Below, piece by piece: positions 22,466 to 41,578 of a stretch of 64,000 bases of DNA; positions within the stretch are counted from its first letter, which is position 1; every line of letters begins with the position of its first letter. The notes under the pieces were generated by a model. That model saw only the letters and a list, made by a program, of their open reading frames with translations. It was not told where the DNA came from and ran no database searches. Origin of the DNA: Lunularia cruciata (Eukaryota; Streptophyta; Marchantiopsida; Lunulariales; Lunulariaceae); assembly GCA_948567375.1 (NCBI GenBank), contig OX419760.1:60756911-60820910 (forward strand). The letters run 5' to 3'. The translations under genes and the position numbers were made by a program.

Positions 22466-22476
22466 AATATGAACGG

Positions 22477-22916
22477 TGTCACGCCATTTGCAGTGTCACA
22501 TCTAGATTGCTCAGACACTGGAGTTCTAGTGATAGTGGTTAGAGTTATTTCAGTAGTTTCTCAAAGACTACTTTCCAATGGCCAGATTGCATGTTTGAGA
22601 ATAGACTTCACGGTGGGGCCCATCATCACTTTGCACCATTTGCACTGTCAAGTGTGCCATCAATGGGACCATTAGGGTTTTAGACCTAGCTCAAGTCCAG
22701 GGGTATACTTTTGAAGTGTAGCTATAGAGAGCTCACTTCTTTGATATTGAGCCTTTGAGTTCTTGGCTATGGTGGACAGAGGCCGGCAAGCGTCACCTAG
22801 ATTCCCTTAGCTAGAGTGGGTGTGGCTTGACTATGATCAATGCCCAATTGTTGGTAGTTTATAGAGTGATAAATCAAATACTGATATGAGTTGAGTGGAT
22901 TCGAGAGTTGTAAACA
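22477..22916 (+). repeat. 5' LTR of the DNMT/PHD element
   Basis: It starts at TGTCACGCCATTTGCAGTGT and ends near GAGTTGTAAACA. It aligns throughout with 31828-32267, for example over CTTTGAGTTCTTGGCTATGG and CAATGCCCAATTGTTGGTAG. Exact ends are uncertain by a few bases. Confidence 0.75.
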
Positions 22917-24229
22917 AGCGGATTCCATCAGAGAAGTGAAATCAGGGGGAAATCAAGTGCAAGAACTTTGAGTGTTGGTGGTATCTCCAAGCTTGGGGGA
23001 TTGTTTGTAGCTCGATTGAAGTTCAGTTTTTCTTTGGTGTGCAGAAGCTCGTTGCTTGATGCACATTTGGCAGTAAGGCGGATGGTGTGTGGAAGCGTTG
23101 GCCAAATTTTGAGCAAAGAAGAAGCAATTTTTGAGCATTGGTTGTGATTTTGAGCTTAGTAGGTGAAGGCATGACCAATTTGTTGCAAGTTGGGCTCAAA
23201 AAGTAAAATTGAAGGTGGAGTTGTGAAGCTATTCTTGTGAATTTGTAATTTGGAGAAACTTGTGTTTTCAATTTGGCTCAAGTTAAGAGTTAGTGGGGGA
23301 TTTGGTGGTCAGCTAAATTTAGGGTATATGTCAAATTTTATGTCAGATTTTGCTGGAGTTTATGTTAGATTTTGGCCAGATTTAGAGGAGTTTTGCTGGT
23401 TTGCTAAATTTAGAGGAGTTTTGCCAGTTTGGAGGACTTTCACAAATTTGGAGGAGTTTCACCAAATTTTGGAGGAGGTTCGAAGTGGCAAGAAGAAAGG
23501 CCTCATTTGGCATTTAGAGGCTTTGAGACATAGGGCTATGAGAGGCTACAAAGGCCTAGATGGGCCAACAAGCCAACTTGTTTGCGTGAGGCTAGCTAGT
23601 ATAGAGTAGATCTTGGTCATTGGTTGGCAAAATCTGCCCATACTACTAGATTGTGTGCAATAGGGTTTGACCCCTAGATCCCTTGTTTCTAGATTGGTGC
23701 CCTAGCCAATTGGTCCACCCTCACTTGTTGTCCTGGTGATTGTGCCATTGTTATCTATACACTTGTAGCTTTGGCTAGGAGAAGCAATTTCATCCCATTC
23801 TTAGTGATCCTGGTAGCTTAGGACTTAGATACAAACTTCTCTTATGTCAAATGCCAAATGGTGGCAGAGTCAATCCCATGTTTTTTTATGAGATGGAGGG
23901 TTTTCATTTAAATTTCTTGTGATTGGACCTCCTCCATTCTCTATTTCTTGTTTGTGCAGCACGTTTGTGTGAGGTGCCTTGACTTTTGAACGTTGATGCT
24001 CTGGTGTGCTCTTGGTAGTGAGGCTGGAGTGATGACCAGTCAGAATACCTTTGTTTCTCTTTGGTGATGCAAGAAGTGATTACCTATTGATCGTGAGAGT
24101 GTGTGATGTGATGGCAGGTTATAGGTTGCACTTTCCCCTAGTGTAGTTATCTTTGTTAGAGTTATATTAGTGGGTGTTGTTTTGTGGGTATTGGCACTTG
24201 GTGGTGCTTAGTTGATGTTGGCACTCGGT

Positions 24230-25850
24230 GGTGCTTAGTTGGTGTTGGCACTTGGTGAGGGACTTGTGGTTGTAGTTTGTGGTTACTTTGCCACAATGGA
24301 GTTTGTTGGGGATTCTAGAGGAGTTAGCCCTATAGTACATAGTGAGTTTACTCAAAGAAGCACTCGATATCAACTTGTATCTCAAGTCCCAGTGAGGGAG
24401 GAGATTGACTCTGAGTTGGAGTTTGACACATGAACTGATTCAGTTGAGAGTGCACTTGGTGTATCTGCATTGTTATTGTGGGATATGGACAAGATTTATG
24501 GGGCCTCTAAAAGCCCTAGATGTTACTTTGGTACAATGGGTACCATTGAGTTGGGTGACTTCATCCAAGAGTTCAATAGTTAGTATGATCTATAGTAGAT
24601 GCAAAACTCGACTTTGTTTATGCCTTTCATGGCATGGAAAGGGTTGTTTCAACATTTGGAGGGTCTGTTGATGGATGACTACCATGAGTTTAGGAGAGCT
24701 CATTTGGAGGAGATTGAGTTATGGAGATATTATTGGTCTCCAAACTATATCTCTATCACTTCAGGCTTGGTTGCCAGGAGTAGATCGGCTATACCTATAA
24801 GTTCTAGCTCGAGTAGTGTTGGTGGAGCTAGTGGAGGTGCACTAGCTGGAGATAATGCTACTACAAGTTGAGGTACCTCTACATGAGGTGGTGTGGTACC
24901 GGGGTTTAACCTCATGGTGGAGTTCTTCTTGTGTTGGAGGTAGAACTACCAGGGAGTGTGGATTGACAAGCTGAGGAGCTTGTAGGAGTTCCAGTGAAAG
25001 GTTGGAGAGAGCTTACACAAGGGCATACACTTGCATGAGGCAGATGATTAGTTTCACTCAAGGAGTTACTTAGGCCCAGGCAGTCCAGTTTTGGTATGGG
25101 ATACTGGATAGGGAGTTGCAACGTAGAGTTTGTGATGCTACATTGTTACATGCTACTTCACCTACTTTGGCAGTGGTCTTTGGTTTGGTTGAGCATATTG
25201 AGCTCAACATGGTGGAGGAGAGAGTGCTGACATCTGGATTTGGTAGGGAGACCTCATCCACGGCTATAACTTCTTCTAGAGTGCAGTAGAGTGCACCACA
25301 CCTAGTTGGTTTTCAAGGATAGGATGGACAACCCAAATCTTATGGAGCAAATGGAGGGTCTAGTGGAGCTAGACCCTTACCTTCATTTTTGGGTCAACAA
25401 CAGCCAATGAGTAGTGGTGTTGCTTGTTGGACTTGTGGTGGACCTCACCATAGGAGAGAGTGTACTCAAGGCAACAGACCTAATACCTCTAGTGCATCAC
25501 AGCCAACACAAAGGCAATGTGAGCATTGCCACAAATTTGGTCACACTAATGATTGAAGCTTTGACCTACACCCGGAAGTTACGGAGTGATAGGGCTATTA
25601 TGGCAAGTAGTAGAGGAACTCTAGGTCATGGAAGACGAGGTGGTAAAGGTGGTGGTAGAGGATCTATACCTAATAGAGGTGCAATACCTACCCTTACTTT
25701 TGATATAGTTATGGCTACTCGGATTGAGCAGTTGGAGCAAAGATTGGCTAGTATGGCCATTGCTCCGAGATCAGATTCGGGTGCTGAGGCTTCCACCTCA
25801 TATGCTGGTGATAGAGATGCTTTGGACTTCATGTGTGGAGCAGCTTAGGT
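24230..25850 (+). pseudogene. Gag-like region with two zinc knuckles (DNMT/PHD element)
   Basis: Broken frames cover a Gag-sized region. At 25425-25463 lies a knuckle-like CWTCGGPHHRREC. At 25518-25556 lies CEHCHKFGHTND, whose last cysteine is lost and which is followed by a stop. A coiled-coil-like segment (RIEQLEQRLASM, about 25720) follows. Gag would package the element RNA. The same segment is found inverted in copy 2 at 40274-40774 and 41161-41530, which shows that it belongs to this family. Confidence 0.6.
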
Positions 25851-26439
25851 GGATGCATCTGCAATAGTGACTAGGAGTGCATTACGTGCTTCAGAACCTA
25901 GAGGAGCATCAATGGAGTTGGACCTACAAAGAGGAGAGGTTGGAACACAGGTTAGACTTCCTCGGTCTTTCATGCTATTTGAGGCATTGCAGACAACATC
26001 CATGGCTCCTTAACGTCCCAATGCAAGTGTGGTAGGTGGTGATGGAGTGCATGATTGACTACCTGCTAGTCAGCCACCTGCTACTACACAGACTGAGTCT
26101 AGCATGATGTTGGGGGTGGCTCAAATGATTATGCAATGCTCTTTATTTTTAACCAATGACATCTTTACATTGGAAGTTGACCCATCCCCAATGTTCCGGT
26201 TGGCTGCCATGCTTTATGAGAGTAGGGATGATGCGGTTCCTACTATTAGAGCAGAGGTGGTTGGTAGTGGAGCTAACTTGGTTGAGGAGCATGGGATCTG
26301 TTCAGCGACCAATGGTTTATGGCAGGCAGCAATGGCTAGACTAGAGGAGTTGCCAACTAGACCGGCCTTTGAGAGAGCGTAGTTCACACCTGGTGTTGTC
26401 CTATTGGATAACCAAAGGGGGATTTTCTGCTTGGTGGGA

Positions 26440-26775
26440 CTTTCAGGGAAGGTCTATCCACCATAGAGAGTCTTGTTAGACTCTGGTGCGTAACCCCTTA
26501 TGTTGGGGAAGGTTGCAGTAGTCAGTCTGGAGTTACGGAGGACCGATGTAGAGAGGTGTCCATTTCAGATCCAAACATCTCTAGGTGGTGGGTCAACACA
26601 ATACATCACACGTGGGGAGCTTGTGGTCCAAGTTCAGCCTGGTCATCCAACTGAAAGCTTGGTGGTGAGAGCTCAAGCTATTGCGACAATAGTTGAGTCA
26701 TATGATGTGCTAGTTGGGAGAGCAATGTTATACCCCACGGGTTTCAACATTGACTATTAGGAGGAGACAATCTCC
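26440..26775 (+). pseudogene. Aspartic protease region (DNMT/PHD element)
   Basis: The catalytic motif RVLLDSGA is visible at about 26469-26492, flanked by in-frame stops at codons that would otherwise fit Gln. Further on, YDVLVGRAMLYP (about 26701-26736) is the usual second half of retroviral-type proteases of gypsy elements. It lies between Gag and the methyltransferase, as expected. Confidence 0.6.
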
Positions 26776-27089
26776 CATAGACCAAGTTGGCAGTCTAGTG
26801 AAGGAAGAGTATGTTGCCTACCAGTACATTTAAGTAGTGATAGTCTTGGCTTACTACAGTCCGGGACCATGGCAACATAAGTTTTAGCTTTTAGTGGTGC
26901 AATTACTTGGCCTGGTGACTTGTTGGAGGGGAAGGCCCATGTAGAAGATACTCTAATACCAAAGGAGATCACTCGGATTTGGAGTACAAGTAGGATTGTT
27001 CCATCCACCTTGGATGTTCTATTGTGGAGTTCAGAGGAGACATTGCAACAACATGCAGATAAGTTGGTGCAACAGGCTTGGAGTGGAGC

Positions 27090-28190
27090 CTTCATACCAT
27101 TAGGAGATGAGTGTGAGGATGAGCCTCCAGAGTCAATTACTTTGACACCTTTGGATACCACACTCATTGCTTGGCGGTACCCAATAGAGGAGATATGTCT
27201 ACTGGAGTTGTTCGATGGGATTAACACCGGACTAGCTGCGGTATTATAGACGGGTATACAAGTACATAGGTACTTGTATGTAGAGAGAGATGAGACTGCT
27301 AGGCGAGTCTCTCTACATCATGTAGCACACTTGGCCTATTGATATCTGGAATTATTATCGATATTAGCAGTCAAAGGTTACCAGAAGGACTTACCAACAA
27401 ACATTTCCTTACTGGGGGCGCATGATCTGGAAAGATATGGGCCTATTCACTTGGTGATTTCTGGATGGCCATGTTAGAGACATACACGTGCTGGTTGAGG
27501 TTTGGTCTTCAGGATCCTTGCTTTGGTGTGTTTTGGGAGATGTTACAGATTCTATGACATCTTCGGGTTCATCAGTCCGTTTCTTTACCTTACCTTTAGA
27601 GAACGTTCTTTTGATAGGTGATTCTTGTACCAGAGTGGTGGCTAGTATATATTAGGTCCATTCTTGGATGGGACTTGCTGTTTTGTTGGATGTAGCCAAA
27701 TTGGGATCACGGGCTCATTGTCTTCATCTTTGGTGGACGAACCTCTTACCCAAAGAGGTTTTACAACGTGCGTATGATGAGATTCAACGACTTGACCACA
27801 TCCTTGTTGATGACATCTTGGATGTTGGGCGTTAGTCTCAAACAATGGTAGTGGCTGCTAGGTCACCTATGGCAATGGTGAACCTAGTTGGATAGCCTAG
27901 AGCCACATTTCCCATGCTCATGAGTTTTTGAGGCTCTCATGCTTTTTGAGAGGGAGGACCTGGACTTATTTGAGACTCATAGGTACAGTAGTTGGTGGAG
28001 CCCAACACTGATGAGAGAGAGCGGGTGATGGGTTTTTGCACTGGTATTACCGCTGTTCTAGCAATGTTAGAGGCATCTAGGCACCAAATGTTAGGTCAGG
28101 CTATGGACCTGAACTGTTTGACTTGGATTATGAACCTTGGCTTGGCTGAGCAGCATAGGATGCGCTTGATAAGCATCACCACTCAAACAC
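27090..28190 (+). pseudogene. DNMT3-like cytosine-5 DNA methyltransferase inside the retrotransposon
   Basis: Motifs occur in canonical order. Motif I is LELFDGINTGLAAVL (27202-27246), the SAM-binding FxGxG-type loop. An acidic RYLYVERDETARR (motif II-like) follows. Motif IV is HLVISGWPC (27448-27474), with the catalytic cysteine codon at 27472-27474 and TAG where Gln is expected. Motif VI is LENV (27596-27607). Motif VIII-like VLLDVAKLGSRAH then LWWTNLLPKEVL (about 27680-27760) resembles the DNMT3 pattern DA-x-x-V-S-x-AHR. Motif IX is DERERVMGFCTGIT (about 28001-28042), and motif X is LGQAMDLN (about 28091-28114). The reading frame shifts at least twice between motifs IV and VI, so this copy is inactive. 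Motif order excludes the permuted plant DRM type. Position between protease and RT, within one pair of LTRs, shows that it is element-borne. Confidence 0.85.
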
Positions 28191-28539
28191 TTGTGAGCCC
28201 TGTGCCTATTGAGACAATTTAGGCACATGTTGGAGGCAATGGACCGAGTGGATATGTTATTCTTGGGATACAACCAGTAGCTACTAGGGAGAGTGGTCTA
28301 CTTGGAGTCCATCTAGATGAGCATGGGCTACTTGGATTACACCCTTGGTCCACTTGGGATGCAGCTAGAGGATGTGTGGAGCTTGCAACCAGAGTGGAGG
28401 GTGTTTTTCACACAGAGGTTGGGACCTCTAGTGGTTAGAGACATGACATTATTGATCCCAAAGGCCCAGTGTAGCAGCCAATCAGTACGTCTTCCATTCC
28501 TACAATAGTTACAGAGGATACTTGGGAGCCAGATCTTGG

Positions 28540-29400
28540 ACCCAAGCTTATTGGAGAGGAAAGAAGAAGGGTTTGGAGGTTCTTGAGAAGCCACACGGGT
28601 TGTTTTGCCTTCAATATGAAGGATTTGGGTGCTCTAAAGGGACATGGTAAATGAATTGAGCTGAGTAGTGATACATCAGTTTTCCAATGTCCATATTGAT
28701 ATAGTGATATGGAGAGGAAATTGATTCAAAGCCGGAGTAGTGACCTTTTTGAGGTTGGTTTGGTGGAGATCTCACATGAAGAGTATGCATTAGCAACAAT
28801 GATGCCAACCAAGAAGGATATGCATAGCAACTACACAAATAGGCAGATGTGTGGAGATTACCGTCTTATCAACAGACAGACCAGGGTTGATTGGTATGCC
28901 ATGCCTACCCAAGAGGAGATTTTTGATGCAATTGGGTATGCAAAGGTCTTTAGTACTTTGGATCTTTGAGCGGGATATCATCAATTGCCAATCAGGGAGG
29001 AAGATAAGTCCAACATAACATTCTGGGCTATTGATCCTCATGGCAAGGATGTGTTATATCAATGGAGGTTCTTACCATTTGGGTTAAAGAACACTCTTGT
29101 TGAGTTCTAGAGGGTCATGGATAGGATCTTAGCTAGATTGGATTTTGATTGGTGCTATATTGATGAAATTTTGGTCTATAGCACTACTGTGGAAGAGCAT
29201 GAGAGACAATTGTTGGATGTGTTTGAGAGGTTGAGATCTCATGGAATCAAGTTACATCTTGGGAAGTGTAGGTTCTTCCATCAGCAGGTTGAGTATTTGG
29301 GTCACACTATCTACCCTGGAAGACAACAAACCAAGGTGGAGGCTATTGCATGTATTCCTTGGCCTACGGATGTGAGTAGATTGTGAGCATTCCTTGGGTT
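28540..29400 (+). pseudogene. Reverse transcriptase (DNMT/PHD element)
   Basis: Typical gypsy RT blocks are MCGDYRLINRQT, FSTLDL-stop-AGYHQLP, YQWRFLPFGLKN, then CYIDEILVYS, where the second Asp of the YIDD catalytic pair has become Glu, followed by LGKCRFFHQQVEYLGH. In-frame TGA and TAG stops replace residues that are normally Arg or Gln. The enzyme would copy element RNA into cDNA; this copy cannot. Confidence 0.85.
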
Positions 29401-29589
29401 GGCAAACTTCTATTGCTGCTATGTTAGAGGATTTAGTGCTATTCCCAAGGCCTTGATGAAGCTAACCAAGCTTACACAAGAGTGGTGTTGGGGAGATGAG
29501 CAGGAGAGAGCTTTTGTTAGAGCTCAAGGAGAGGTTGACATCTGCTCATATTTTGAGGAGACCGATCAAAGGATGACCATTTTAGGTTC

Positions 29590-29960
29590 ATATTGATTGG
29601 AGTATGTTGGGGCTTGGAGCGGTGCTCACCCAACATGATGATTAGTGGAAGGAGTTTGTGGTGGCCTATGCTAGTCGCTCCAACATTTCAGCAGATGCAA
29701 AGTATAGTTCACATGAAAGAGAGTGCTTGGTAGCAGTTTGGGCAATAGCACATTTCAGATGTTATCTATTTGGTACCCCTTCACTCTCATCACTGATCAT
29801 CAGCCACTAAAGTGGTTGATGGAATCCGACAAGCTTTCAAGGAAGCTTGCACGATGGGCTTTGATTTTACAAGAGTATGATTTCACGGTTGTTCACAAAC
29901 CTGGAGTGGTGAACCGTGATGCAGATGGGTTGAGTAGAAACCCATGTCCCAGCCAGCAAG
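29590..29960 (+). pseudogene. RNase H domain (DNMT/PHD element)
   Basis: The blocks AKYSSHERECLVAVWAI, TLITDHQPLKWLM and VNRDADGLSRNP are the standard gypsy RNase H landmarks, and they follow the RT without a gap. The domain is mostly open (29723-30232) but broken at its beginning. Confidence 0.8.
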
Positions 29961-30239
29961 ATCAGACCAGAGCACGTTGGCATGGTGAGACAAATGAGGA
30001 GATAGTGCCAGGTTGGAATGCATCGGCCTTTTGGTGTATATTTTCTAAGGCTTTGGTGGTATCTCTCTCAGCGCATACAGGAGGAGGTATAGAGGTCACA
30101 GATCTAGAGAGTGAAGATATTGGTATATTTTGGCAAGACATTCATGATGATATCTTAGTGATGGACTATCTTTGCATTGGTGTTATGGGTGGCATAATTA
30201 GGGCCAAGGAGAGAGATCATGTTCTTCAGTGAGCCACAT

Positions 30240-31230
30240 GGTTTAGATTGGAGAGCAAACATATTTTGCATGTATAGGAGGATGATAGAGTGAGAGTAGT
30301 ACCACTTTTATCTTAGAAACCACAGTTGGTCCATCATGCTCATGAGGAGCTAGGACATTTTGGAGTAAAGCATATATATAGCTTACTCTAGAGTCATTAT
30401 TGGTGGCTCAGTATGCAGACCAAGGTACAATAGTTTGTTACTAGATGTGTGGTTTGTGACCAAGTTAGAGCATCATTCAATGCTCCTACATCACATTCAC
30501 ACCCATTACCTATCATGGGATTGGGTTACTATTGGAGTTTGGACTTTGCTGGACCTTTATCATTGACTATGAGACATCATCCGTATGTCTTGGTGATGGT
30601 GGAGCACTTCTCCAAGTGGATTGAGAGAAGGGACAACTTACTCATTCTTGGATGGAGTTCTTAGTCATTTTGGCGCATCAGTTGAGGTTTTGATTGATCA
30701 GGGTACAAAGTTCTTGGGGGAGTTTTAGGTCTTGTGTGACAAGGCTTTGATTGATCATCATACTACATCCCAAGATCACCTTGTGACACATGGCTTAGCA
30801 GAGAGAGTAGTTCAGACGATGAAGAGAGGATTGTGAAAGTATGGTTTGCAAAGAGGCCACTTGGGAGATTAGGATCTCCAATTACCTTGGTTGGCTATGG
30901 GCTATTGATTCAGCCGGCAAGCCTCCTTAGCATCCTTCTCTCCTTACTTCCTACTCTATGGACGAGATCCAAATTTACCTGCATCCATTTGTTGAGATGC
31001 TACTGTAGTTTTGGACTTGGATGACCCAGATGTATGGATGAGTGCATGTTCTCAACGGGCAGAGATCTTTCAGAGAGTGATGCCAATGGCCTTTGAGAAC
31101 TTGGCGATTGCTCAACATAGAGATACTTTACGCTATGCTACCATTCAAGGAGGAGGTTTTAGACCCTTGATCCGTTGATTTCATCCAAGAGACTATGTAT
31201 ATCTACAGCAAACAACATTGATGACGCTTG
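30240..31230 (+). pseudogene. Integrase (DNMT/PHD element)
   Basis: An HHCC zinc-binding region is visible (HAHEELGHFGVKH, then CVVCDQ at about 30330-30460). The core begins with YYWSLDFAGPLS and VMVEHFSKWIE (30527-30624). Several stops and shifts follow. The C-terminal part continues in frame into the PHD-bearing tail (31253-31552) through YVYLQQTTLMTLDV-type sequence. Confidence 0.75.
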
Positions 31231-31252
31231 ATGTTTTGCAAGCCATACTCTC

Positions 31253-31555
31253 TTGAGAGTGCATGAGATCTTGCCATCTAGAGTCCTTGTGTTAGAAGGA
31301 CATGATGGTGTTGTTTGGAAGGATTATGTGCGCAATTGTGCGCCATGCCACCTCCCAAACATTGATGGTATTATGAACCCAAGCTTGGCACTTGTACGTG
31401 GAGACTTGAGGTGTATGTTATGTGGCTCTTCTAGTGGAGCTACTACTATGTTAGTGTGTGATAGCTGTTTGAGAGGATGGCATATGACATGTATGACTTC
31501 TCTCCTCACGGTGGTTCCTCAAGGACAATGGTTATGTCTTATATGTACTTGATCT
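31253..31555 (+). CDS. C-terminal integrase tail with an intact PHD finger
   Basis: This 99-residue open segment ends in a perfect C4-H-C3 PHD pattern at 31412-31546: C54-x2-C57-x11-C69-x2-C72-x4-H77-x2-C80-x14-C95-x2-C98, with WHMTC and GQWLCLIC around the ligands. PHD fingers commonly read histone H3 tails. At the end of an integrase it would plausibly steer insertion, in the place where chromoviruses carry a chromodomain. A second, inverted copy at 32815-32990 has a more canonical LTPPL core. The Pol polyprotein itself is broken upstream. Confidence 0.85.
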
Positions 31556-31827
31556 ATAGCTAGATCATTCTTTATATGGTATAGATTACAAACAGGCAAC
31601 TAATGATGGGGCTCCATAGCACCCAACCTCCTAATCTTTGCCTATCATAGGGTATACTATATACTTGGAGTAGATGGCTATTTGGAGTTAGAGGGACCTA
31701 ATTGCCAACTAGGGGGCAATTGTGGCACTTTAGAGTCTATGTATGACTTATGTGTGAGTTGTGCTTCTATAGTGTATGATGTTGACAGCGATATATGTTG
31801 TGTAGCAATGTATATACATACGACAGC

Positions 31828-32267
31828 TATCATGCCATTTGTAATGTCACATCTAGATTGCTCAAACATTGGAGTTCCAATGATAGTAGTTAGACTTATT
31901 GAAGCAATTTCTCAAAGAGTACTTTCCGACGGTCAAATTTTGTGTTTAGGGTATTGACTCACAATGGAGCCCACCATCACTTTGCACCATTTGCATCATA
32001 GGATGTGCCATCAGCGGGACCGTTAGGGTTTCAGACCTAGCTTGAGTTTAGGGGTATACTTTTAAAGTGGAGCTCCAAAGAGCTCACTTCTTTGATGTTG
32101 AGCCTTTGAGTTCTTGGCTATGGTGGACAGAGGTCGGTGAGCATCACCTAGATTCTCTTAGCTAGAGTGAGTGTGGCTTGATTGTAATCAATGCCCAATT
32201 GTTGGTAGTTTATGGAGTGACAGATCAAGTATTGATTTGAGTTGAGTGGATTCAAGAGTTGTAAAAA
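31828..32267 (+). repeat. 3' LTR of the DNMT/PHD element
   Basis: It aligns with the 5' LTR from TATCATGCCATTTG to GAGTTGTAAAAAA. By eye it is clearly diverged from the 5' LTR, so the insertion is old. A ~90-bp module beginning CACTTTAGAGTCTATGTATG occurs both just before it (31728-31816) and just after it (32275-32345). Confidence 0.75.
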
Positions 32268-32814
32268 ATTTGATTATTGTAGCACTTTAGAGTCTATGTA
32301 TGACTTATGTGTGAGTTGTGCTTCTATAGTGTATAATGTTGATAGCAATGTATATACACATGACAATGGTGCAAGTGAAGATGGGTTCCACCATGCGATT
32401 AGTAGCCCTAATATGAAATCAGACCGTCAACAAGGAGTCCATGAGTAACTACCAAAATACTTATGACTACTAACACTACTACTCTAATGTCCAAGCAATC
32501 TAGCTTTGACACCACAAATATCATGATATTTGTCATGTGTATATACATTTCTACACAATATACATCATTGTATACATCATCTACTATAGAAGCACAACTC
32601 ACACATAAGGCATACATGAACTCTAAAGTGCCACAATCACCTCCTAGTTGGTAGTTAGGTCCCTTTAACTCTAGATAACCATCTACTCCACGTATATGGT
32701 ATACCCTATGGTGGGCAAAGATCAAGAGGTTGAGTACTATCGGTCCCATTGTTAGTTGCCTATAAGAAATCTATACCATATAAAGGGTGAACTAACTATA
32801 TGTCAAGTACATCT

Positions 32815-32990
32815 AGGATATAACCATTATCCATTAGGAACCACCATGAGAGGAGGAGTCAAACATACTATATGCCATCCTCTCAAACAACTATCACACA
32901 CTAACATAGTAGTAGCTCCACCAAGAGAGCATCATAACATACACCACAAGCATGCATGTACAAGTGCCAAGCTTGGATCCATAGTGAACA
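32815..32990 (-). pseudogene. PHD finger of retrotransposon copy 2
   Basis: The reverse complement of the PHD segment of copy 1 is recognisable: TTMLVCDSCLRGWH, then VCLTPPL, then PRCT at the end. One stop codon lies near the first ligands and another (TAA) stands where Gln is expected before the last cysteine pair. It shows that the PHD tail is a fixed part of this element family, not a one-off capture. Confidence 0.75.
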
Positions 32991-33699: not shown

Positions 33700-34435
33700 T
33701 GTAATACCAAGAGCTAGCCATATGATCTAGATGTGAAATTTGGTTTGGTAATATCTACAATGATGTTATACATGATGGTCAAAATAGATCAGATAGAAGT
33801 ATCACCAAAAGAGTACTTCTACTAATAGAGTAGAGACCAAAATAGACTTGAGAACCTTAGAACCAATAGCTAGACATATGATTAAAAGGTGAGAATTGGT
33901 TTGGTAACATCTGGAAGGATGTTACACATGATGGACTAAACAGATCAGAAAGAGGTATCACCAAAAGGGGACTTCTACTAATAGAGTAGGAATCAAAATA
34001 TACCTAAAATCTTTGAAGGCAATTTCAAAGGCCTAAATGGATGAATTAGGCCTCAAAAATGTGCCGATTCCCCTCCCTCCATTGCGGAGAAGGCTAGCCT
34101 TCCCTCCTCCTTGGTTTGTCTCGTTGAGAGCTTTCCAACGGTACCTTACGTGATTCTGAGACTCCTATAGGAAAATTCCCAAAAAGATTCCCTCTGTTCA
34201 AAGCTTGTTTGACCAACCAGATAGGACCTAGACCGACATGTCACCCATCTAAGTAAGTAATCCAAGGGTGGAGCTTGTTGACATGTCACCTATTTGTGTG
34301 CTTAATCTAGTGGTGGAGCTTCCTTGGAGGAGATCCTCTTTGTCTATATAATAAAGAGAAAATGGTTCTTTGGGGCACCAAATGTTGAGTGTGTAATCTG
34401 TGTTTTCTTTCCTCTCTTATCCTTGGAGTATTACA
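33700..34435 (+). repeat. 5' LTR of the chromovirus
   Basis: It runs from TGTAATACCAAGAGCTAGCC to GGAGTATTACA, with the terminal TGTAA/TTACA inverted pair. TATATAATAAAGAGAA near 34345-34362 may be the promoter box. Confidence 0.95.
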
Positions 34436-34436
34436 A

Positions 34437-34448
34437 TGGTATCAAAGC
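34437..34448 (+). other. Primer binding site, initiator tRNA-Met type
   Basis: TGGTATCAAAGC begins one base after the LTR. It differs by one base from the common plant site TGGTATCAGAGC, complementary to the 3' end of initiator tRNA-Met. Confidence 0.85.
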
Positions 34449-35040
34449 AAGTATCTTAGTCCAAGAGAGTGGATCACCCCTCTTGGAAGATCACAAACTA
34501 CTAAAACTAAGTAATTTGAGGTGGAGGACATAGAGTAATTGTTAGACTTAGGAAGGACTTTAGATAGCATATGGGATGGATGCACCAAGATGACAATTTC
34601 CCGCACCTAGCTTTCCATTCCCAAATCCATTCCACGTCAATATTATGTACATCCAACGTGAGCAAATGAGGGTATCGCCAATTTATCACTTTGGCACAAA
34701 ATTCATGATAGGATGATGAACTCACCAAACCCGGTGATTCTACCTATGGTGATATATGATAGAGAGTGAGATTTGACAATCTACATTCTATTATGATAAT
34801 ATGGATGTGAATGTCCCAAATCCTCTCCCTTTCAACACTCAAGTAGAAATCCATTATGTAGTGAGACCAAAAGTGATGTTTAGAGATTTTGTGGTTAGAA
34901 ATTTTGGCAAGGAGTATTATCAACAAGTGAAAGCTTTTGAGGTCCCAATGGTAGTTTTGATAGTTCATGCACCTTCCAGAGTGATCATATTGACTCTGTA
35001 TTAAATTATACATTAGCAATTGAGTGTTGCAAGAACCATG
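34449..35040 (+). other. Leader region of the chromovirus with an unassigned frame
   Basis: About 600 bp lie between the primer site and recognisable Gag. A 67-codon frame at 34801-35004 (starting MDVNVPNPLPF) is not Gag-like and matches no family I know. It may be leader sequence or captured DNA. Confidence 0.4.
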
Positions 35041-36060
35041 GATCTGACATTGCAAGAGCTGGTGCAAGGAATGCAAGGGATGTTGAATGAATTTTGAGAG
35101 ATTAAGATGACCATGGAGACATTACAAAGTCAAGTGCAAATTCTTAGGAACAATCAAGCCATGCAAGAAGAAGAGCCGTCTCAAAACCCAAAGAGTACTA
35201 AAGTACTTAGAGATGCACCTGTGCCTACAAACCCTATCAATGATGAAGCCACATTGCTATTTTGGATGAAGAAGACCAACAACATCAAGCCTTACAAGGG
35301 GCAACGTATGATGGGAGTAGTGGAAAAACGGATCTCAAGAATGAATCGATATTTCCAATTGTTCTCAACAAAGATCACTGAGCATGCTGCAGGCGTGTTT
35401 GCATGTGGGTTTTGACCAATAAAGCCCTCACATGGTATGATGCTTGGGAACAATCCATGTTGGCAGAGAGAAGGGAGGTCATGTAGACAGCTATGCAAGA
35501 AGGATTGCTGAAGAATTTCCAATCGGTGGATTCTATGCAGATGGCTCAAACCCGACTACGAGGATTGAGACAAAAGAATAGCATACAAGAGTATGTGGAT
35601 GCATCTCTAGATCTACAAGTTGCAATAACAGACATGAGTCCAATAGAGGCTCTCGACAATTTCAAACGAGGGTTAAAGGAGCGGATTCGCCAAGAAGTCA
35701 TAGTGCAAAATCCTCACACGGTATTTGAAGCCATTGCTTGTGCACAAAGAATAGCAAGAGCATTGGATGGAGGTGCAGGAGTAGTTCCATCTCAACATTA
35801 TCAAGCAAAAATGCCACACATGGGTAGACTAGTACCAATGGAATTGGGCAACCTTTGATTTTGAGATTGAGGAGCACGACCGCTTCAAGTGGAGCGTGGA
35901 TGGGTACAAGAACAAAGAGATGAAGTCCCACGAGGAGAATGAACTTGAGGAGAACAACGCTGTTGTTACAATTGTGGCCATATTGGGCACATATCTACCA
36001 ACTATCGCACTCGTTTCCATAGAGGCCCTCGGCCTTTGTACATGCGATCTTTGAACAACA
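35041..36060 (+). pseudogene. Gag of the chromovirus
   Basis: Capsid-like helical sequence is found at 35493-35858 (LRGLRQKNSIQEYVDASLD, RGLKERIRQEV), followed by one zinc knuckle CYNCGHIGHISTN at about 35957-35995, whose final cysteine is replaced by Tyr. Stop codons break the frame at 35100 and around 35415. Confidence 0.75.
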
Positions 36061-36229
36061 TGGAGAGGTGCATTGAAGAGGAGGAGGTGGAAACCACTTC
36101 GGAAAATAAAGATTGCCAATAAATGTACCTTGCAGCCAAATTGGATCAATGAGGAAGAAGAGAAGCGAGGGAAGGAAGAAGACTAAGGCGCAAAGATCCC
36201 GAAAGGCAACCTCACAATTGATTATGAAT

Positions 36230-38050
36230 GGAGTCTTAGAAGGCAATTAAGTGAGAGTATTAATCAATTTGGGAGCAACAAAGAATTTCTTATCTCGCTC
36301 TATTGCAATAAGATTGGGAATGGATCTAGAGAGAGATAACAGTGAAGAAGTAGAGTTGCCTAACGGGCAAACATAGAGGATTGAATCATTACCTAGATAG
36401 GTAACACTCTATGTAAGAGAATATCAAGAAGTAATTGAGTGGCAAGTGATACAATTAGCTTGTTATGATGCAATCTTAAGCATGCCATGGATGGAGCATT
36501 ACAAACCTATGGTAGATTGGAGGAAGAAAGTAGTGAGAACCCACCAATGGTCAATCATTGGGGTTAAAGAAAAATCACCCAAGCAAGATTTGCCTCTATA
36601 TGTCATAGGTACGGCAACTATTTGTAAGACCGATAGATGTTTCATGGGTCTAACAAGAGAAGTCCAGAGTGCACAACTCAATGGAAAAGATCTAGAGAAA
36701 TTGATGATATACCCTTAGGATTACCACCAAAAAGGAGATTAGATCATAAAATTGAGACACTCTTGGAGTAGACACCTCCTTGTAAGGCTCCATATCGCCT
36801 ATCACCTCATGAGTTGGAAGAGTGTAAGACTCAAATTAAGGAGATGCTACAAAAGGGGTTCATCCAACCTAGCATATCACCATATGGGGCTCCTATCTTT
36901 TTTGTGAAGAAGAAGAAGGATGGTACAATGCGCATGTGCATTGACTATCGACGTCTCAATCAACAAATAATGATGAACAAATACCCCTTACCTCGCATGG
37001 ATGATCTCTTTGATCAACTCCATGGAGTGAGATACTTCACCAAATTGGACTTGCAGAGCGGTTACAATCAAATCCAAATTGCAGAGGAAGATGTGTACAA
37101 AACTGCCTTTTGAACCAAGTATGGCCACTTCGAGTATCTTGTGATGCCTTTTGGCCTCACCAATGCACATGCCACTTTCATGAGTCTAATTAATGACATA
37201 TTTCATCCATATTTAGATAAGTCTATTATTGTCTTCTTGGACGATATCTTAGTATACAATAGCACAATGACGGAACACAAACAACATCTATGAGAGGTCC
37301 TCCAGATTTTAAGACAAAATAGATTGTATGCCAAAATCTCAAAGTGTAAGTTTGGCAAGTCTGAAGTAGAATACTTGGAGCATAGAGTAAGTGCAGAGGG
37401 CATTCAAGAATTGATAGATAAAATAGAGGTCATTCAAAAATGGCATGCCCCCAAAGATCAAACTCAACTCAAGAGCTTCTTGGGGTTGATGGGATTCTAT
37501 CATAGATTTGTCAAAGACTTCTCCAAGGTTGCATAGCCTTTAACGACACTATTTGGCAAGAGGAAGAAGTGGACATCGAGAACTGTACAAGAGTTGGCCT
37601 TTCAAGAATTGAAAGCCGGCTTGCTACATGCACCAATCTTGAAGTAGTATGACCCAAAAAGACCAATCAAGTTGGCTATATATGCATCAAGCATAGCAAT
37701 AGAAGCAGTCCTACAACAAGAGTGGCATGACGGATGGCATCCAATTGCATATTTCTCTCAAAAGTTATTACTAACAGAGTGCAACTACCACACTACAGAA
37801 CGAGAAGAGTTGGCTATTGTTCTGGCAACCAAGCATTGGAAGCACTATCTTGGCAAGAAGGCATTTGTAGTAGAGACATACCACAAACTTCTAGTCTACC
37901 TCGAAACGCAAAAGGATATATCTTGTCACCAGATTGGGTGGGCAGAGTGGCGACAATGCTTCAACATGTCAATCACCTACGTGGAAGGTAAGAAGCAACT
38001 TGCAGATGTATTCACCAGCATGCCAATGGCAAACAACTTAGTGGCATAGG
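36230..38050 (+). pseudogene. Protease, reverse transcriptase and RNase H of the chromovirus
   Basis: The protease active site reads VLINLGATKNFLS, where DSGA is expected. RT blocks [37 protein letters not shown] and the intact FLDDILVYN follow (36814-37260), then FLGLMGFYHRFVKDFSKVA. RNase H has TEREELAIVLATKHWKHYL and ADVFTSMP, where gypsy elements usually have AD-LSR. Several in-frame stops split the region. Confidence 0.85.
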
Positions 38051-38149
38051 TTAAGATTAACCATGAATTTTGGCCAGAGATTCTGGCTGCTACAAAAACT
38101 GATCCGTAGATCATAGAAGTGCAATCTGCAATCTGCATGCATCTACAAG

Positions 38150-39040
38150 TTGAATATCACCAGCACCCAAGGACTCACCTTTTGTGATAGTAGATTATGG
38201 ATACCAAATGTCCTAGAATTATGCACCACCATTCTAGCGGAATGTCATGATTTGGCCATTGTAGGTCATGTCGGAGTGGACAAGACCTTAGATCCAGTCC
38301 AACGCCATTACTATTGGCCCAAGATGAGCAATAGCGTGATGGACTATGTGCACAACTGCCTACTTTGTCAACAAAACAAAGATTCTAATCGAGCTCCTGC
38401 AAGGCTCTCTTCAACCTCTCCCCATGCCTACCCAACGTTGGGAACAAGTGAGTATGGATCTCGACTATGAATTACCCAAGACCACCTTAGGGTTTGACTC
38501 CATCATGGTCTTTGTGGACCGGCTCAGCAAAATGATTCATGTACGCCCTACCACCAAGGATGTGACCGCTCCACAACTAGCCCAATTATACTTAAATACA
38601 GTCTTCTCTCACCATGGCTTGTCTAGAGTACTTATCATCGATGGATGCACTCAATTCACCAGTTTGTTTTGGCAAACACTCTTTGGTTTCTTCAAAACCA
38701 AGTTGGCCATGTCCACAACTTACCATCCACAAACAGATGGCCAAATAGAGTGGGCTAATCCCACGATTGAAGACATGTTATGCGACTTTACCTTAGAAGA
38801 GCAAGAGAGGTGGGACACCCTACTCCCGTTGGTGGAATTTGCTTACAAAAATTTAGTGAATGCATCCACCCAGGTCACTCCATTCTTCCTCATGTATAGT
38901 GAGCATCCCTTCACACCTTCTAGCTTGATGAAGATCCATCTAATGGTTACCAAGGTCGATTCAGTAAACACAATTGTTTCTAAAATCCAACAAGGTGTGG
39001 AGAGCGTCAAACATAGATTACAGATTGCACAAAATTGACA
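38150..39040 (+). pseudogene. Integrase of the chromovirus
   Basis: The HHCC zinc region is clear (ECHDLAIVGHVGVDKTL, YVHNCLLCQQNK). A frameshift near 38400 then leads into the catalytic core with FVDRLSKMIHVRPTTK, IIDGCTQFTS and TYHPQTDGQIEWAN (38490-38760), covering the second Asp and the Glu region of the DDE triad. Confidence 0.85.
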
Positions 39041-39059
39041 AAAGTAGTATGTTGATGCA

Positions 39060-39524
39060 CACCATAGGCACATGGAGTTCAATGTTAGGGATCAAGTGTG
39101 GCTATCGACAAGCAATTTCACATTAGTTGGACCTTGTAAGCTCAGACCTCATTTTATTGGGGCTTTCTCGATTCTTCATCACGTCAGCGTTGTGGCCTAT
39201 CATCTTGAGCTACCACCACACATGAAGATCCATCCAGTGTTCCATGTTTCCCTACTATGCAGATATGCTCCCCAATCAGACCAAGGTCATTCCACACATC
39301 GACCTTGTTTGACACTCATTGATGGCAGAGAGGAATATGAAGTGGAGCATATTCTCCAAAAATGCATGCGTGGTACTCGCCATCTACAAGTGGACTATCT
39401 AGTACAGTGGAAAGGTTACTCCCTCTATGAAGCAACATGGGAGCCCGCTTCCAATTTGACATATGCACCGGTGTTGGTACAAGCATGTGAGAAACAATTG
39501 CACAATGAAGACGTTGCATCTTAA
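39060..39524 (+). pseudogene. Integrase C-terminus with chromodomain
   Basis: The GPF-like module (VGPCKLRPHFIGAFSI, HPVFHVSLL) is followed by a chromodomain at about 39335-39500: YEVEHILQKC, VDYLVQWKGYSLYEATWEP. Chromodomains of chromoviruses bind methylated histone H3 and direct insertion to heterochromatin. This frame is open, but the protein is cut upstream by a stop near 39038. Confidence 0.9.
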
Positions 39525-39535
39525 AAGGAGGGAGG
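39523..39535 (+). other. Polypurine tract of the chromovirus
   Basis: AAAAGGAGGGAGG ends two bases before the 3' LTR and would prime plus-strand DNA synthesis. Confidence 0.85.
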
Positions 39536-39537
39536 TC

Positions 39538-40273
39538 TGTAATACCAAGAGCTAGCCATATGATCTAAATGTGAAATTTGGTTTGGTAATATCTAGAATG
39601 ATGTTATACATGATGGTCAAAATAGATCAGATAGAAGTATCACCAAAAGAGTACTTCTACTAATAGAGTAGAAACCAAAATAGACTTGAGAACCTTAGAA
39701 CCAATAGCTAGACATATGATTTAAAGGTGAGAATTGGTTTGGTAACATTTGGAAGGATGTTACACATGATGGACTAAACAGATCAGAAAGAGGTATCACC
39801 AAAAGGGGACTTCTACTAATAGAGTAGGAATCAAAATATACCTAAAATCTTTGAAGGCAATTTCAAAGGCCTAAATGGATGAATTAGGCCTCAAAAATGT
39901 GCCGATTCTCCTCCCACCATTGTGGAGAAGGCTAGCCTTCCCTCCTCCCTGGTTTGTCTCGTTGAGAGCTTTCCAACGATACCTTACGTGATTCTGAGAC
40001 TCCTATAGGAAAATTCCCAAAAAGATTCCCTCCGGTCAAAGCTTGTTTGACCAACCAGATAGGACCTAGACTGACATGTCACCCATCCAAGTAAGTAATC
40101 CAAGGGTGGAGCTTGTTGACATGTCACCTATTTGTGTGCTTAATCTAGTGGTGGAGCTTCCTTGGAGGAGATCCTCTTTGTCTATATAATAAAGAGAAGG
40201 TGCTTCTTTGGGGCACCAAATGTTGAGTGTGTAATCTGTGTTTTCTCTCCTCTCTTATCCTTGGAGTATTACA
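39538..40273 (+). repeat. 3' LTR of the chromovirus
   Basis: It has the same length and ends as the 5' LTR (TGTAATACC...GTATTACA) and is followed directly by the CATTA target duplication. Confidence 0.95.
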
Positions 40274-40774
40274 CATTAAGACATCTAGGAACTATGGATG
40301 TCCTATATAGTGCCTCAAAGAGTGTAAAAGATTGGGGGAGTCTAATTTGTCTACCAGCCTCTCCTCTTTGTGGGTCCAACTCCATTGATGCTCCTCTAGA
40401 CTCTAGAGCACATATTGCACTCCTTGGCATTACGGTAGTTGCATCTACCTATACTGCTCTACACATAAAGTCCAAGACGTCCATATTGCCAACATAAGAG
40501 GTGGAAGCCTCAACACCCAAATATGATCTCCTCTAAGCTATGGCCATGCTAGCCAATCTTTGCTCCAATTGCTCAATCCAAGTAGCCAGACTATATTAGA
40601 TGTAAGAGCATGTACTGCATTCCTACTAGGCATGGATCCTCTACCACCAACTCTACAACCTCATCTTCCATGATCTAGAGCTCCTCTACCACCTACTATA
40701 GTAGCCCTACCACTCTGTAAATGCGGGTGAAGGTCAAAGCATCGGTCAATAGTGTGACCAAATCTTTGGCAATG

Positions 40775-41160
40775 TGTAATACCAAGAGCTAGCCATATGA
40801 TCTAGATGTGAAATTCGGTTTGGTAACATCTAGAATGATGTTATACATGATGGTCAAAATAGATCAGATAGAAGTATCACCAAAAGAGTACTTCTACTAA
40901 TAGGGAAAAAACCAAAATATACTTGAGAACCTTAGAACCAATAGTTAGACATATGATTTAAAGGTGAGAATTGGTTTGGTAACATCTGGAAGGATGTTAC
41001 ACATGATGGACTAAACAGATCAGAAAGAGGTATCACCAAAAGGGGACTTCTACTAATAGAGTAGGAACCAAAATATGCCTGAAAACTTTGAAGGCAATTT
41101 CAGAGGCCTAAACGGATGAATTAGGCCTCGACAATGTGCCATCTCCCCCCCCCCCCTCCC
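40775..41160 (+). mobile_element. Truncated chromovirus LTR
   Basis: The first ~386 bp of the same LTR family begin at TGTAATACCAAGAGC and stop in a C-rich run (about 41147-41156). It splits the Gag zinc-knuckle region of copy 2. Comparison with copy 1 shows that ~120 bp of target (equivalent to about 25412-25533) are missing, so this is an insertion followed by deletion. Confidence 0.8.
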
Positions 41161-41578
41161 ACACTCATTGGTTGCTATTGACCTAAAAAATAAAGTAAGG
41201 GTCTACTACACTAGGCCCTCCACCCACTCCGTAAGATCTAGGCTATCCACTCTATCCTCAAAAGCCAACATGGCATAGTGCACTCTATTGCACTCTAGAA
41301 GAAGTAACAACTATGGATGAGTTTTCCCTACCAAAAACACATGTCACCACTCTCTCCTCTACAATGTTGAGCTCAATGTGCTTAGCTAAACTAAAGACCA
41401 TTGCCAAAGAGGGTGAAGTAGCATGTAACAACATAACATCATTTACTATACATTATAACTCCTTGTCTAGAATCCTATACTAAAATTGGACTGCCAATCC
41501 CATACCAAAATTACTTCTCTATGAGATCTTTAAAATACTCATCTATCAAAGATATTTGTGAAAATATTTACAACCTAT

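What the first reader, a model, noticed from the sequence alone, without database searches (positions are those of the whole stretch)
27090..28190. A DNMT3-like DNA methyltransferase encoded inside a Ty3/gypsy retrotransposon
Seen: methyltransferase motifs I, IV, VI, VIII, IX and X in canonical order between protease and RT, all within one pair of LTRs. Known: cytosine methyltransferases inside retrotransposons have been reported from charophyte algae and dinoflagellates, where self-methylation of element DNA was proposed. A land-plant version with this layout would extend that. Inference: the element could methylate its own cDNA or target sites, either to hide or to limit harm to the host.
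Basis: partly seen in the sequence, partly recalled or inferred. Interest (0 to 1): 0.9.

Follow-up and report, generated by a model that had tools for sequence, protein, structure and literature searches.

The report
Bryophyte retrotransposon carrying a DNA methyltransferase
A jumping gene present in hundreds of copies in this land-plant genome carries its own DNA-methylating enzyme; such elements were known from an alga and from dinoflagellates, and relatives are found here in liverworts and Sphagnum moss, although the copy in this window is a dead relic.

Summary
Confirmed for the family; the window copy is a relic. The element spans 22477-32365 and is bounded not by plain LTRs but by split direct repeats A-coding-B-A-B, with TG...CA ends and a 4-bp target duplication (6 of 7 copies with both ends). 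A DNMT3-like C5 methyltransferase lies between protease and RT (27190-28140): 16 in-frame stops here, none in 12 of 29 copies examined. It ends ORF1 (gag-PR-MTase); after one in-frame TAG comes ORF2 (Ty3-type RT, DDE integrase, PHD finger). The stop context occurs 705 times in the genome, the repeat junction 1863 times. DNMT3 is best by sequence (5.9e-10) and fold (50 of 50 rows shown). Rows from Marchantia, Calypogeia, Sphagnum and metagenomes form one group (100/99), apart from host DNMT3. Shared variants show the same constraint as RT (0.30, 0.29; 15 copies). C-to-T decay at CG and CHG also marks a methyltransferase-free neighbour, so self-methylation is not shown. Precedent: KnitGypsy-Dnmt3 of Klebsormidium (2018), with the same repeat layout. 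My searches found no land-plant report.

The parts
22473..22476 (.). left target-site duplication ACGG (right: ATGG at 32366-32369; 3 of 4 bases equal)
22477..22924 (+). A1: left terminal repeat, begins TGTCACGCC; two stretches 80% and 86% identical to A2 (end approximate)
   Evidence: (D2, D3)
24296..28474 (+). ORF1 (decayed here): gag, two CCHC knuckles, protease, methyltransferase, ends at TAG; 1428 aa stop to stop in L029
25428..25557 (+). two CCHC zinc knuckles of gag (CWTCGGPHHRREC and CEHCHRFGHTSDRC in the open copy); coordinates approximate
26390..26760 (+). aspartic protease region (LLDSGA; approximate)
27190..28140 (+). DNMT3-like C5 methyltransferase, pseudogene in this copy: motif I 27202, IV 27457 (stop replaces Gln), VI 27596, VIII 27731, X 28097
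28472..28474 (+). in-frame TAG between ORF1 and ORF2, followed by CAG CCA (CAR-YYA type context, recalled); TAG in 30 of 31 distinct copies, 1 not scorable
28475..31552 (+). ORF2 (decayed here): RT, RNase H, H2C2 and DDE integrase, PHD finger; 1037 aa open in L018
31407..31552 (+). [quoted passage not shown]
31719..31825 (+). B1 repeat, after a short G-rich tract
31826..31827 (+). GC dinucleotide between B1 (...GACA) and A2 (TGTC...; TATC here): both element ends stand here head to tail
31828..32275 (+). A2 repeat
32276..32365 (+). B2: right terminal repeat, ends ...CATGACA
32403..32983 (-). 3' end of a second, inverted copy of the same family; possibly the same copy as the gag pieces at 40274-41495
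   Evidence: I1-I4, I7

Best explanation
A dead copy of a successful Ty3/gypsy-type retrotransposon family whose Gag-protease polyprotein ends in a DNMT3-like cytosine-5 methyltransferase. SHOWN: the enzyme domain is real, keeps its catalytic residues in nearly all copies and has no stop in 12 of 29; variants shared among copies are as constrained as those of RT; it groups with retroelement methyltransferases of liverworts, Sphagnum and unnamed metagenomic hosts. SHOWN: it lies before an in-frame TAG, RT-RNaseH-integrase-PHD after it; the element has A-B-A-B repeats yet inserts with 4-bp target duplications, as a DDE integrase does. INFERRED: ORF2 is made by occasional read-through of the TAG, so the methyltransferase is made at Gag level and packed in the particle with the nascent cDNA. 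INFERRED: it methylates the element's own double-stranded cDNA before or at integration; the PHD finger, closest in sequence to those of CHD4, KMT2D, KMT2C, PHF12 and KDM5B, steers integration to chromatin with a suitable H3 tail. INFERRED: the internal B-GC-A junction is copied during reverse transcription to restore both termini, and integrase trims the GC.
For: PF00145 3.4e-7; DNMT3A 5.9e-10, DNMT3B 7.9e-7, then HaeIII 5e-4, DRM2 0.013, DNMT2 0.03, HhaI 0.04; 12-row profile: DNMT3A 1.6e-21, 4onj 'DNA methyltransferase' (a plant DRM, recalled) 1.2e-13, DRM2 1.1e-10, HaeIII 3e-10. AlphaFold model of the relative P0033, pLDDT 91; 50 of the 50 PDB rows shown are DNMT3 entries. Motif IV Cys in 29 of 29 copies, ENV Glu in 28 of 29 (1 gap), the two motif VIII Arg in 26 of 29 each, 12 of 29 without stops, gaps not examined (window included). 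In the 15 copies with both domains at hand (window included) variants shared by two or more have nonsyn/syn per site 0.30 (MTase) and 0.29 (RT), singletons 0.67 and 0.56; shared versus single p 0.005 and 0.037. RT nearest to Ty3 (1.3e-67); integrase D-D-35-E. Repeats and target duplications. TAG in 701 of 705 context matches. One group, 100/99. Hits in six named bryophyte species.
Against: No activity, expression or methylation data. No fetched copy had ORF1 and ORF2 both open at full length (1428 aa in 2 of 10, 1037 aa in another 2 of 10), so present activity is not shown. The TAG and the A of CCA are no better conserved than a nearby synonymous site (4 of 705 and 2 of 703 versus 3 of 704; p 1.0 for the stop), so they are ancestral in the family but not shown to be selected; in one copy of 30 (L049) the codon after CAG is CTT, outside CAR-YYA. 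Some relatives run from MTase into RT without a stop (P0003, P0005, P0024, P0026); for the bryophyte ones this may be gene-model splicing. Over all 29 copies the shared-versus-single contrast weakens (0.45 versus 0.66, p 0.096). CG and CHG decay is also seen in an MTase-free element. The one test of a Gypsy-borne DNMT that I found, in yeast, showed no activity and was called inconclusive (PMC5890265).
Confidence: 0.72

Rival explanations
1. The methyltransferase acts in trans on host chromatin: it methylates the insertion site or lowers host damage (self-limitation) rather than marking the cDNA.
For: In relatives P0027, P0030 and P0031 the MTase lies between RNase H and integrase, and the PHD finger points to the integration complex.
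Against: In this family it lies in ORF1, parted from integrase by a stop; no data on flanking methylation.
Confidence: 0.2
2. The domain no longer methylates DNA and is kept as a structural, SAM- or nucleic acid-binding part of the particle.
For: K. nitens and SymbioLINE DNMTs gave no methylation in yeast (PMC5890265). Some relatives deviate in motif VI (VENT in P0030, LENG in P0029).
Against: Motif IV Cys, ENV and motif VIII Arg kept in nearly all copies (alignments); fold of active DNMT3.
Confidence: 0.12
3. The window matches are a chance string of motifs or a host DNMT3 pseudogene that the element happens to surround.
For: The window frame is broken.
Against: The whole MTase stretch is 88% identical to an element copy and lies at the same place in the other fetched copies; the stop context that follows it occurs 705 times; host DNMT3 genes are split by introns and fall outside the group.
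Confidence: 0.01
4. The TAG is not a read-through site: ORF2 is made by re-initiation, splicing or not at all (the master copies borrow Pol from relatives).
For: Stop and CCA context not more conserved than a synonymous control; a CAG to TAG change is the expected CHG-methylation decay; no fetched copy has both ORFs open at full length.
Against: ORF2 continues in the same frame directly after TAG, is open for 1037 aa in 2 of 10 copies, and its shared variants show constraint 0.29; 701 of 705 context matches have the stop, so transposing masters had it.
Confidence: 0.3

Closest known systems
KnitGypsy-Dnmt3 of the alga Klebsormidium nitens (de Mendoza et al. 2018, PMC5890265; parts 1-4 of 7 read, and passages)
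   Same: DNMT3-like domain with unrearranged motifs, no introns, inside a Gypsy element; [quoted passage not shown] 4 legend); purifying selection on the DNMT.
   Different: Host is a land plant (inferred); MTase is in ORF1 before a TAG rather than described in the Pol ORF; 'PHD' and 'read-through' have 0 occurrences in the main text and target duplications were not seen for it in the parts read; hundreds of copies. Direct sequence comparison was not possible (no K. nitens sequence at hand).
SymbioDIRS-Dnmt3 and SymbioLINE-Dnmt of dinoflagellates (same paper)
   Same: Retroelement-borne DNMT; SymbioDIRS methylates CG in yeast.
   Different: Tyrosine recombinase or LINE machinery, not Ty3-type RT with DDE integrase.
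Plant DNMT3 host genes (this genome L036, L033; Diphasiastrum P0153)
   Same: DNMT3 fold and motif order.
   Different: Introns (L036, L033), no pol; a separate branch in the tree.
Chromoviruses of plants
   Same: Ty3/gypsy with a chromatin-reader domain after integrase (abstract start of PMC3605345 in listing).
   Different: PHD finger instead of chromodomain; split direct repeats; methyltransferase.
PAT/DIRS split-direct-repeat elements
   Same: A-coding-B-A-B repeats (stated for DIRS in PMC5890265; PAT recalled).
   Different: DDE integrase and target-site duplications instead of tyrosine recombinase.

Membership tests
Ty3/gypsy (Metaviridae) | RT-RNaseH nearest to Ty3 | tested here: met
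   4ol8 1.3e-67, Ty3-G Gag-Pol 4.1e-67, next 'enzymatic polyprotein' 2.5e-43
Ty3/gypsy (Metaviridae) | order PR-RT-RH-IN with H2C2 and DDE integrase | tested here: met
   (protease by motif and by alignment to relatives; Pfam did not call it in L029)
Ty3/gypsy (Metaviridae) | a pair of LTRs at the ends | tested here: not met
   A-B-A-B split direct repeats in 7 of 10 copies, 3 lack a full left repeat
DNMT3 methyltransferases | best match to DNMT3 in sequence and fold, unrearranged motifs | tested here: met
DNMT3 methyltransferases | falls inside the eukaryotic DNMT3 clade in a tree | tested here: inconclusive
   own group 100/99 on a 1.16 branch; unrooted, DNMT3A partial and long-branched
DRM (rearranged) | motifs VI-X before I-V | tested here: not met
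   order I, IV, VI, VIII, X
KnitGypsy-Dnmt3 | Gypsy pol plus DNMT3 plus DIRS-like repeats | tested here: met
   against the Fig. 4 legend
KnitGypsy-Dnmt3 | common descent with the K. nitens copies | not tested
   no K. nitens name among the rows listed (32 of 32; 120 of 419)
DIRS/PAT | tyrosine recombinase, no target-site duplication | tested here: not met
   rve integrase; 4-bp duplication in 6 of 7 copies
CAR-YYA stop read-through | stop followed by CAR YYA, in-frame downstream ORF | tested here: met
   TAG CAG YYA in 29 of 30 scored copies, L049 has CTT; consensus recalled
CAR-YYA stop read-through | excess conservation of the context | tested here: not met
   no excess over a synonymous control
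CAR-YYA stop read-through | measured read-through | not testable with these tools
   needs a reporter assay

The most novel reading that the evidence does not exclude
One capture of a DNMT3-type gene founded an old clade of green-lineage retrotransposons that still thrives in bryophytes. The enzyme is made at Gag level upstream of a leaky stop, is packaged, and methylates the cDNA; the element regenerates both ends from an internal B-GC-A junction by DIRS-like copying but integrates with a retrovirus-like DDE integrase guided by a PHD finger.
Probability: 0.3. Interest if true: 0.78.

Novelty: new member of a known kind. Interest (0 to 1): 0.62.

Why it matters
Plants silence retrotransposons by DNA methylation, so an element that keeps its own methyltransferase under selection is a paradox open to test. 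In the papers I found it rested on an alga and dinoflagellates. [quoted passage not shown] if land plants are meant literally, the bryophyte copies contradict that. Marchantia, in which relatives are annotated, is a transformable model plant (recalled), so the question becomes testable. Counts of DNA methyltransferase genes in bryophyte annotations may be inflated: four listed hits carry a '(cytosine-5)' methyltransferase name in UniRef (P0006; P0052, P0074, P0147).

Tried and rejected
Chance or lone host pseudogene: rejected. DRM, DNMT1, DNMT2 or bacterial identity: weaker in sequence; in the fold search the 50 rows shown are DNMT3, the rest of 194 below E 0.001 was not shown. Selection on the stop codon: the whole-genome pattern test gave no excess over a synonymous control. 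Self-methylation from CpG depletion: the decay is CG plus CHG and also present in the MTase-free element at 33700-40273. Viral source: 19 IMG/VR loci with 24-45% identity in their best segments, not studied further; Foldseek in the viral library gave mostly phage and giant-virus C5 methyltransferases where a name was shown, best 5.9e-18. tRNA primer site after A1 and polypurine tract before B1: only weak candidates seen by eye, no claim made. In one search the reference row duplicated one copy in each table; one search repeats the counts without it and is the one cited. L042, L043 and L044 duplicate L005, L006 and L049, and L039 and L041 were left out of the codon tables as rearranged. P0157 was left out of the tree as too short. 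One hit (P0038) bears a bacterial MAG name; I take it for contamination, untested.

Full report
OBSERVATION. The window lies in an unnamed 565.8-Mb genome, contig C10. Three-frame translation of 26400-29000 shows C5-methyltransferase motifs I, IV, VI, VIII and X at 27202, 27457, 27596, 27731 and 28097. The copy is broken: 16 in-frame stops over 443 codons, a frame change between motifs IV and VI, a stop in place of the Gln after the catalytic Cys, both motif VIII Arg codons lost. The region is 88% identical over the 1326 nt compared to an open copy that meets PF00145.

ANATOMY. In ten copies fetched with flanks, ORF1 is open for 1428 aa in two and ORF2 for 1037 aa in two others; none has both at full length. 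ORF1: two CCHC knuckles, an aspartic-protease motif, methyltransferase. ORF2: RT, RNase H, H2C2 and DDE integrase, PHD finger. RT is nearest to Ty3. They are separated by one TAG in the same frame. TAG stands in 30 of 31 distinct copies examined (1 not scorable), followed by CAG and YYA in 29 of the 30. With the T left free, 705 places in the genome match the context and 4 of them lack the T. A nearby synonymous position varies as rarely (3 of 704), as does the A of CCA (2 of 703), so this is ancestry, not proof of selection. Several annotated Marchantia proteins (such as P0001) end shortly after the MTase as ORF1 does, while P0003, P0005, P0024 and P0026 run on into RT.

ENDS. Seven of ten copies have A1-coding-B1-A2-B2 in full (A about 450 nt, B about 108 nt); c011, c021 and c023 lack a full left repeat. 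Elements start TGTC, end GACA, and carry a 4-bp target duplication in 6 of 7 (c015 does not). The window copy shows ACGG/ATGG. B1 and A2 are joined as GACA-GC-TGTC in 8 of 10 copies; 1863 places in the genome match this junction with up to 2 mismatches. A1 and A2 are 97-99% identical in six of the seven full copies and 88% in c015, 80-86% in the window, so the window copy is old. My reading, inferred: the B-GC-A junction is the template from which both termini are rebuilt, and integrase removes the GC, as retroviral integrases remove two bases (recalled).

THE ENZYME. DNMT3A is the best solved relative (5.9e-10); the best outside DNMT3 are HaeIII 5e-4, DRM2 0.013, DNMT2 0.03; with a 12-row profile DNMT3A 1.6e-21, best outside 1.2e-13. 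A model of the relative P0033 (pLDDT 91) matches DNMT3 entries in the 50 PDB rows shown; its alignment of 40 rows included five DNMT3-like rows from outside the family. In a 65-row tree the 30 rows taken from the element searches form one group (100/99); several of these are methyltransferase-only metagenome fragments not themselves shown to lie in an element. The host's own DNMT3 genes (L036, L033) and DRM (L038) lie outside. The tree is unrooted, and DNMT3A and DRM are partial and long-branched, so the depth of the DNMT3 link is unsure. In other members the MTase lies between RNase H and integrase (P0027, P0030, P0031) or ahead of RT in one ORF (P0026, P0032); a PHD finger was found in four of these five, not in P0026.

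DISTRIBUTION. Two searches with the element gave 32 hits and 419 hits, 120 listed; in both only the candidates sharing most words were scored. Named plant hosts: Marchantia polymorpha, M. paleacea, Riccia sorocarpa, Calypogeia fissa, Sphagnum fallax and S. troendelagicum; one hit has a bacterial MAG name (P0038); the rest of the rows shown are proteins without a host name. Of the named hosts M. polymorpha, C. fissa and S. troendelagicum are in the tree; the Sphagnum rows nest among liverwort rows, so element and host trees disagree. The host of the window is inferred to be a bryophyte; no call names it.

SELECTION AND METHYLATION. In the 15 copies with both domains at hand (window included), shared variants have nonsyn/syn per site 0.30 in the MTase and 0.29 in RT, singletons 0.67 and 0.56 (p 0.005 and 0.037). 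In the 12 copies without stops the MTase values are 0.28 and 0.78; over all 29 copies 0.45 and 0.66 (p 0.096). Identity to the M. polymorpha proteins tried: MTase 66-74%, RT 68-82% over pieces (a 27% match in P0006 lies within its methyltransferase region and is not counted), protease 41-60%, gag 66-69%. C-to-T changes in the MTase region: CG 6.6%, CHG 5.4%, CHH 1.1% in 28 copies; 28, 27 and 9% in the window copy. The MTase-free Ty3/gypsy LTR pair in the window shows the same bias (CG 3 of 12, CHG 3 of 20, CHH 7 of 256). Host methylation explains this; self-methylation is neither shown nor excluded.

LITERATURE. Nine full-text searches brought up one primary report, PMC5890265 (parts 1-4 of 7 read), its correction and citing papers. 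[quoted passage not shown] PMC6338049 (passages) says land plants, 'such as tracheophytes', lack such elements. The passages seen of PMC10952607, PMC6453930, PMC9033089 and PMC12477816 mention no bryophyte case.

VERDICT. A real and well-supported land-plant branch of a known kind of element; the mechanism (packaged MTase, cDNA methylation, read-through) remains inference.

Noticed in passing
33700-41155: A second Ty3/gypsy-like element without methyltransferase (LTR pair 33700-34435 / 39538-40273, 97.6% identical) with a further LTR-like repeat at 40769-41155, apparently nested in an inverted copy of the DNMT element.
   Followed up: partly
C-terminal parts of P0030 and P0032: Two related retroelement polyproteins carry a further C-terminal stretch with a DPFAGSG / DPWAGSG motif that looks like a second, different methyltransferase-like domain.
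   Followed up: no
L036, L033, L035, L038: The genome has at least two intron-containing DNMT3-like genes and two DRM-like genes.
   Followed up: partly
24296 and copies: The likely ORF1 start is ATG in the window and some copies but ACG in others at the same place; a non-AUG start or loss of the start is possible.
   Followed up: no
P0083 (Calypogeia fissa): A second, more distant protease-methyltransferase lineage seems to coexist with the first in the same leafy liverwort.
   Followed up: no
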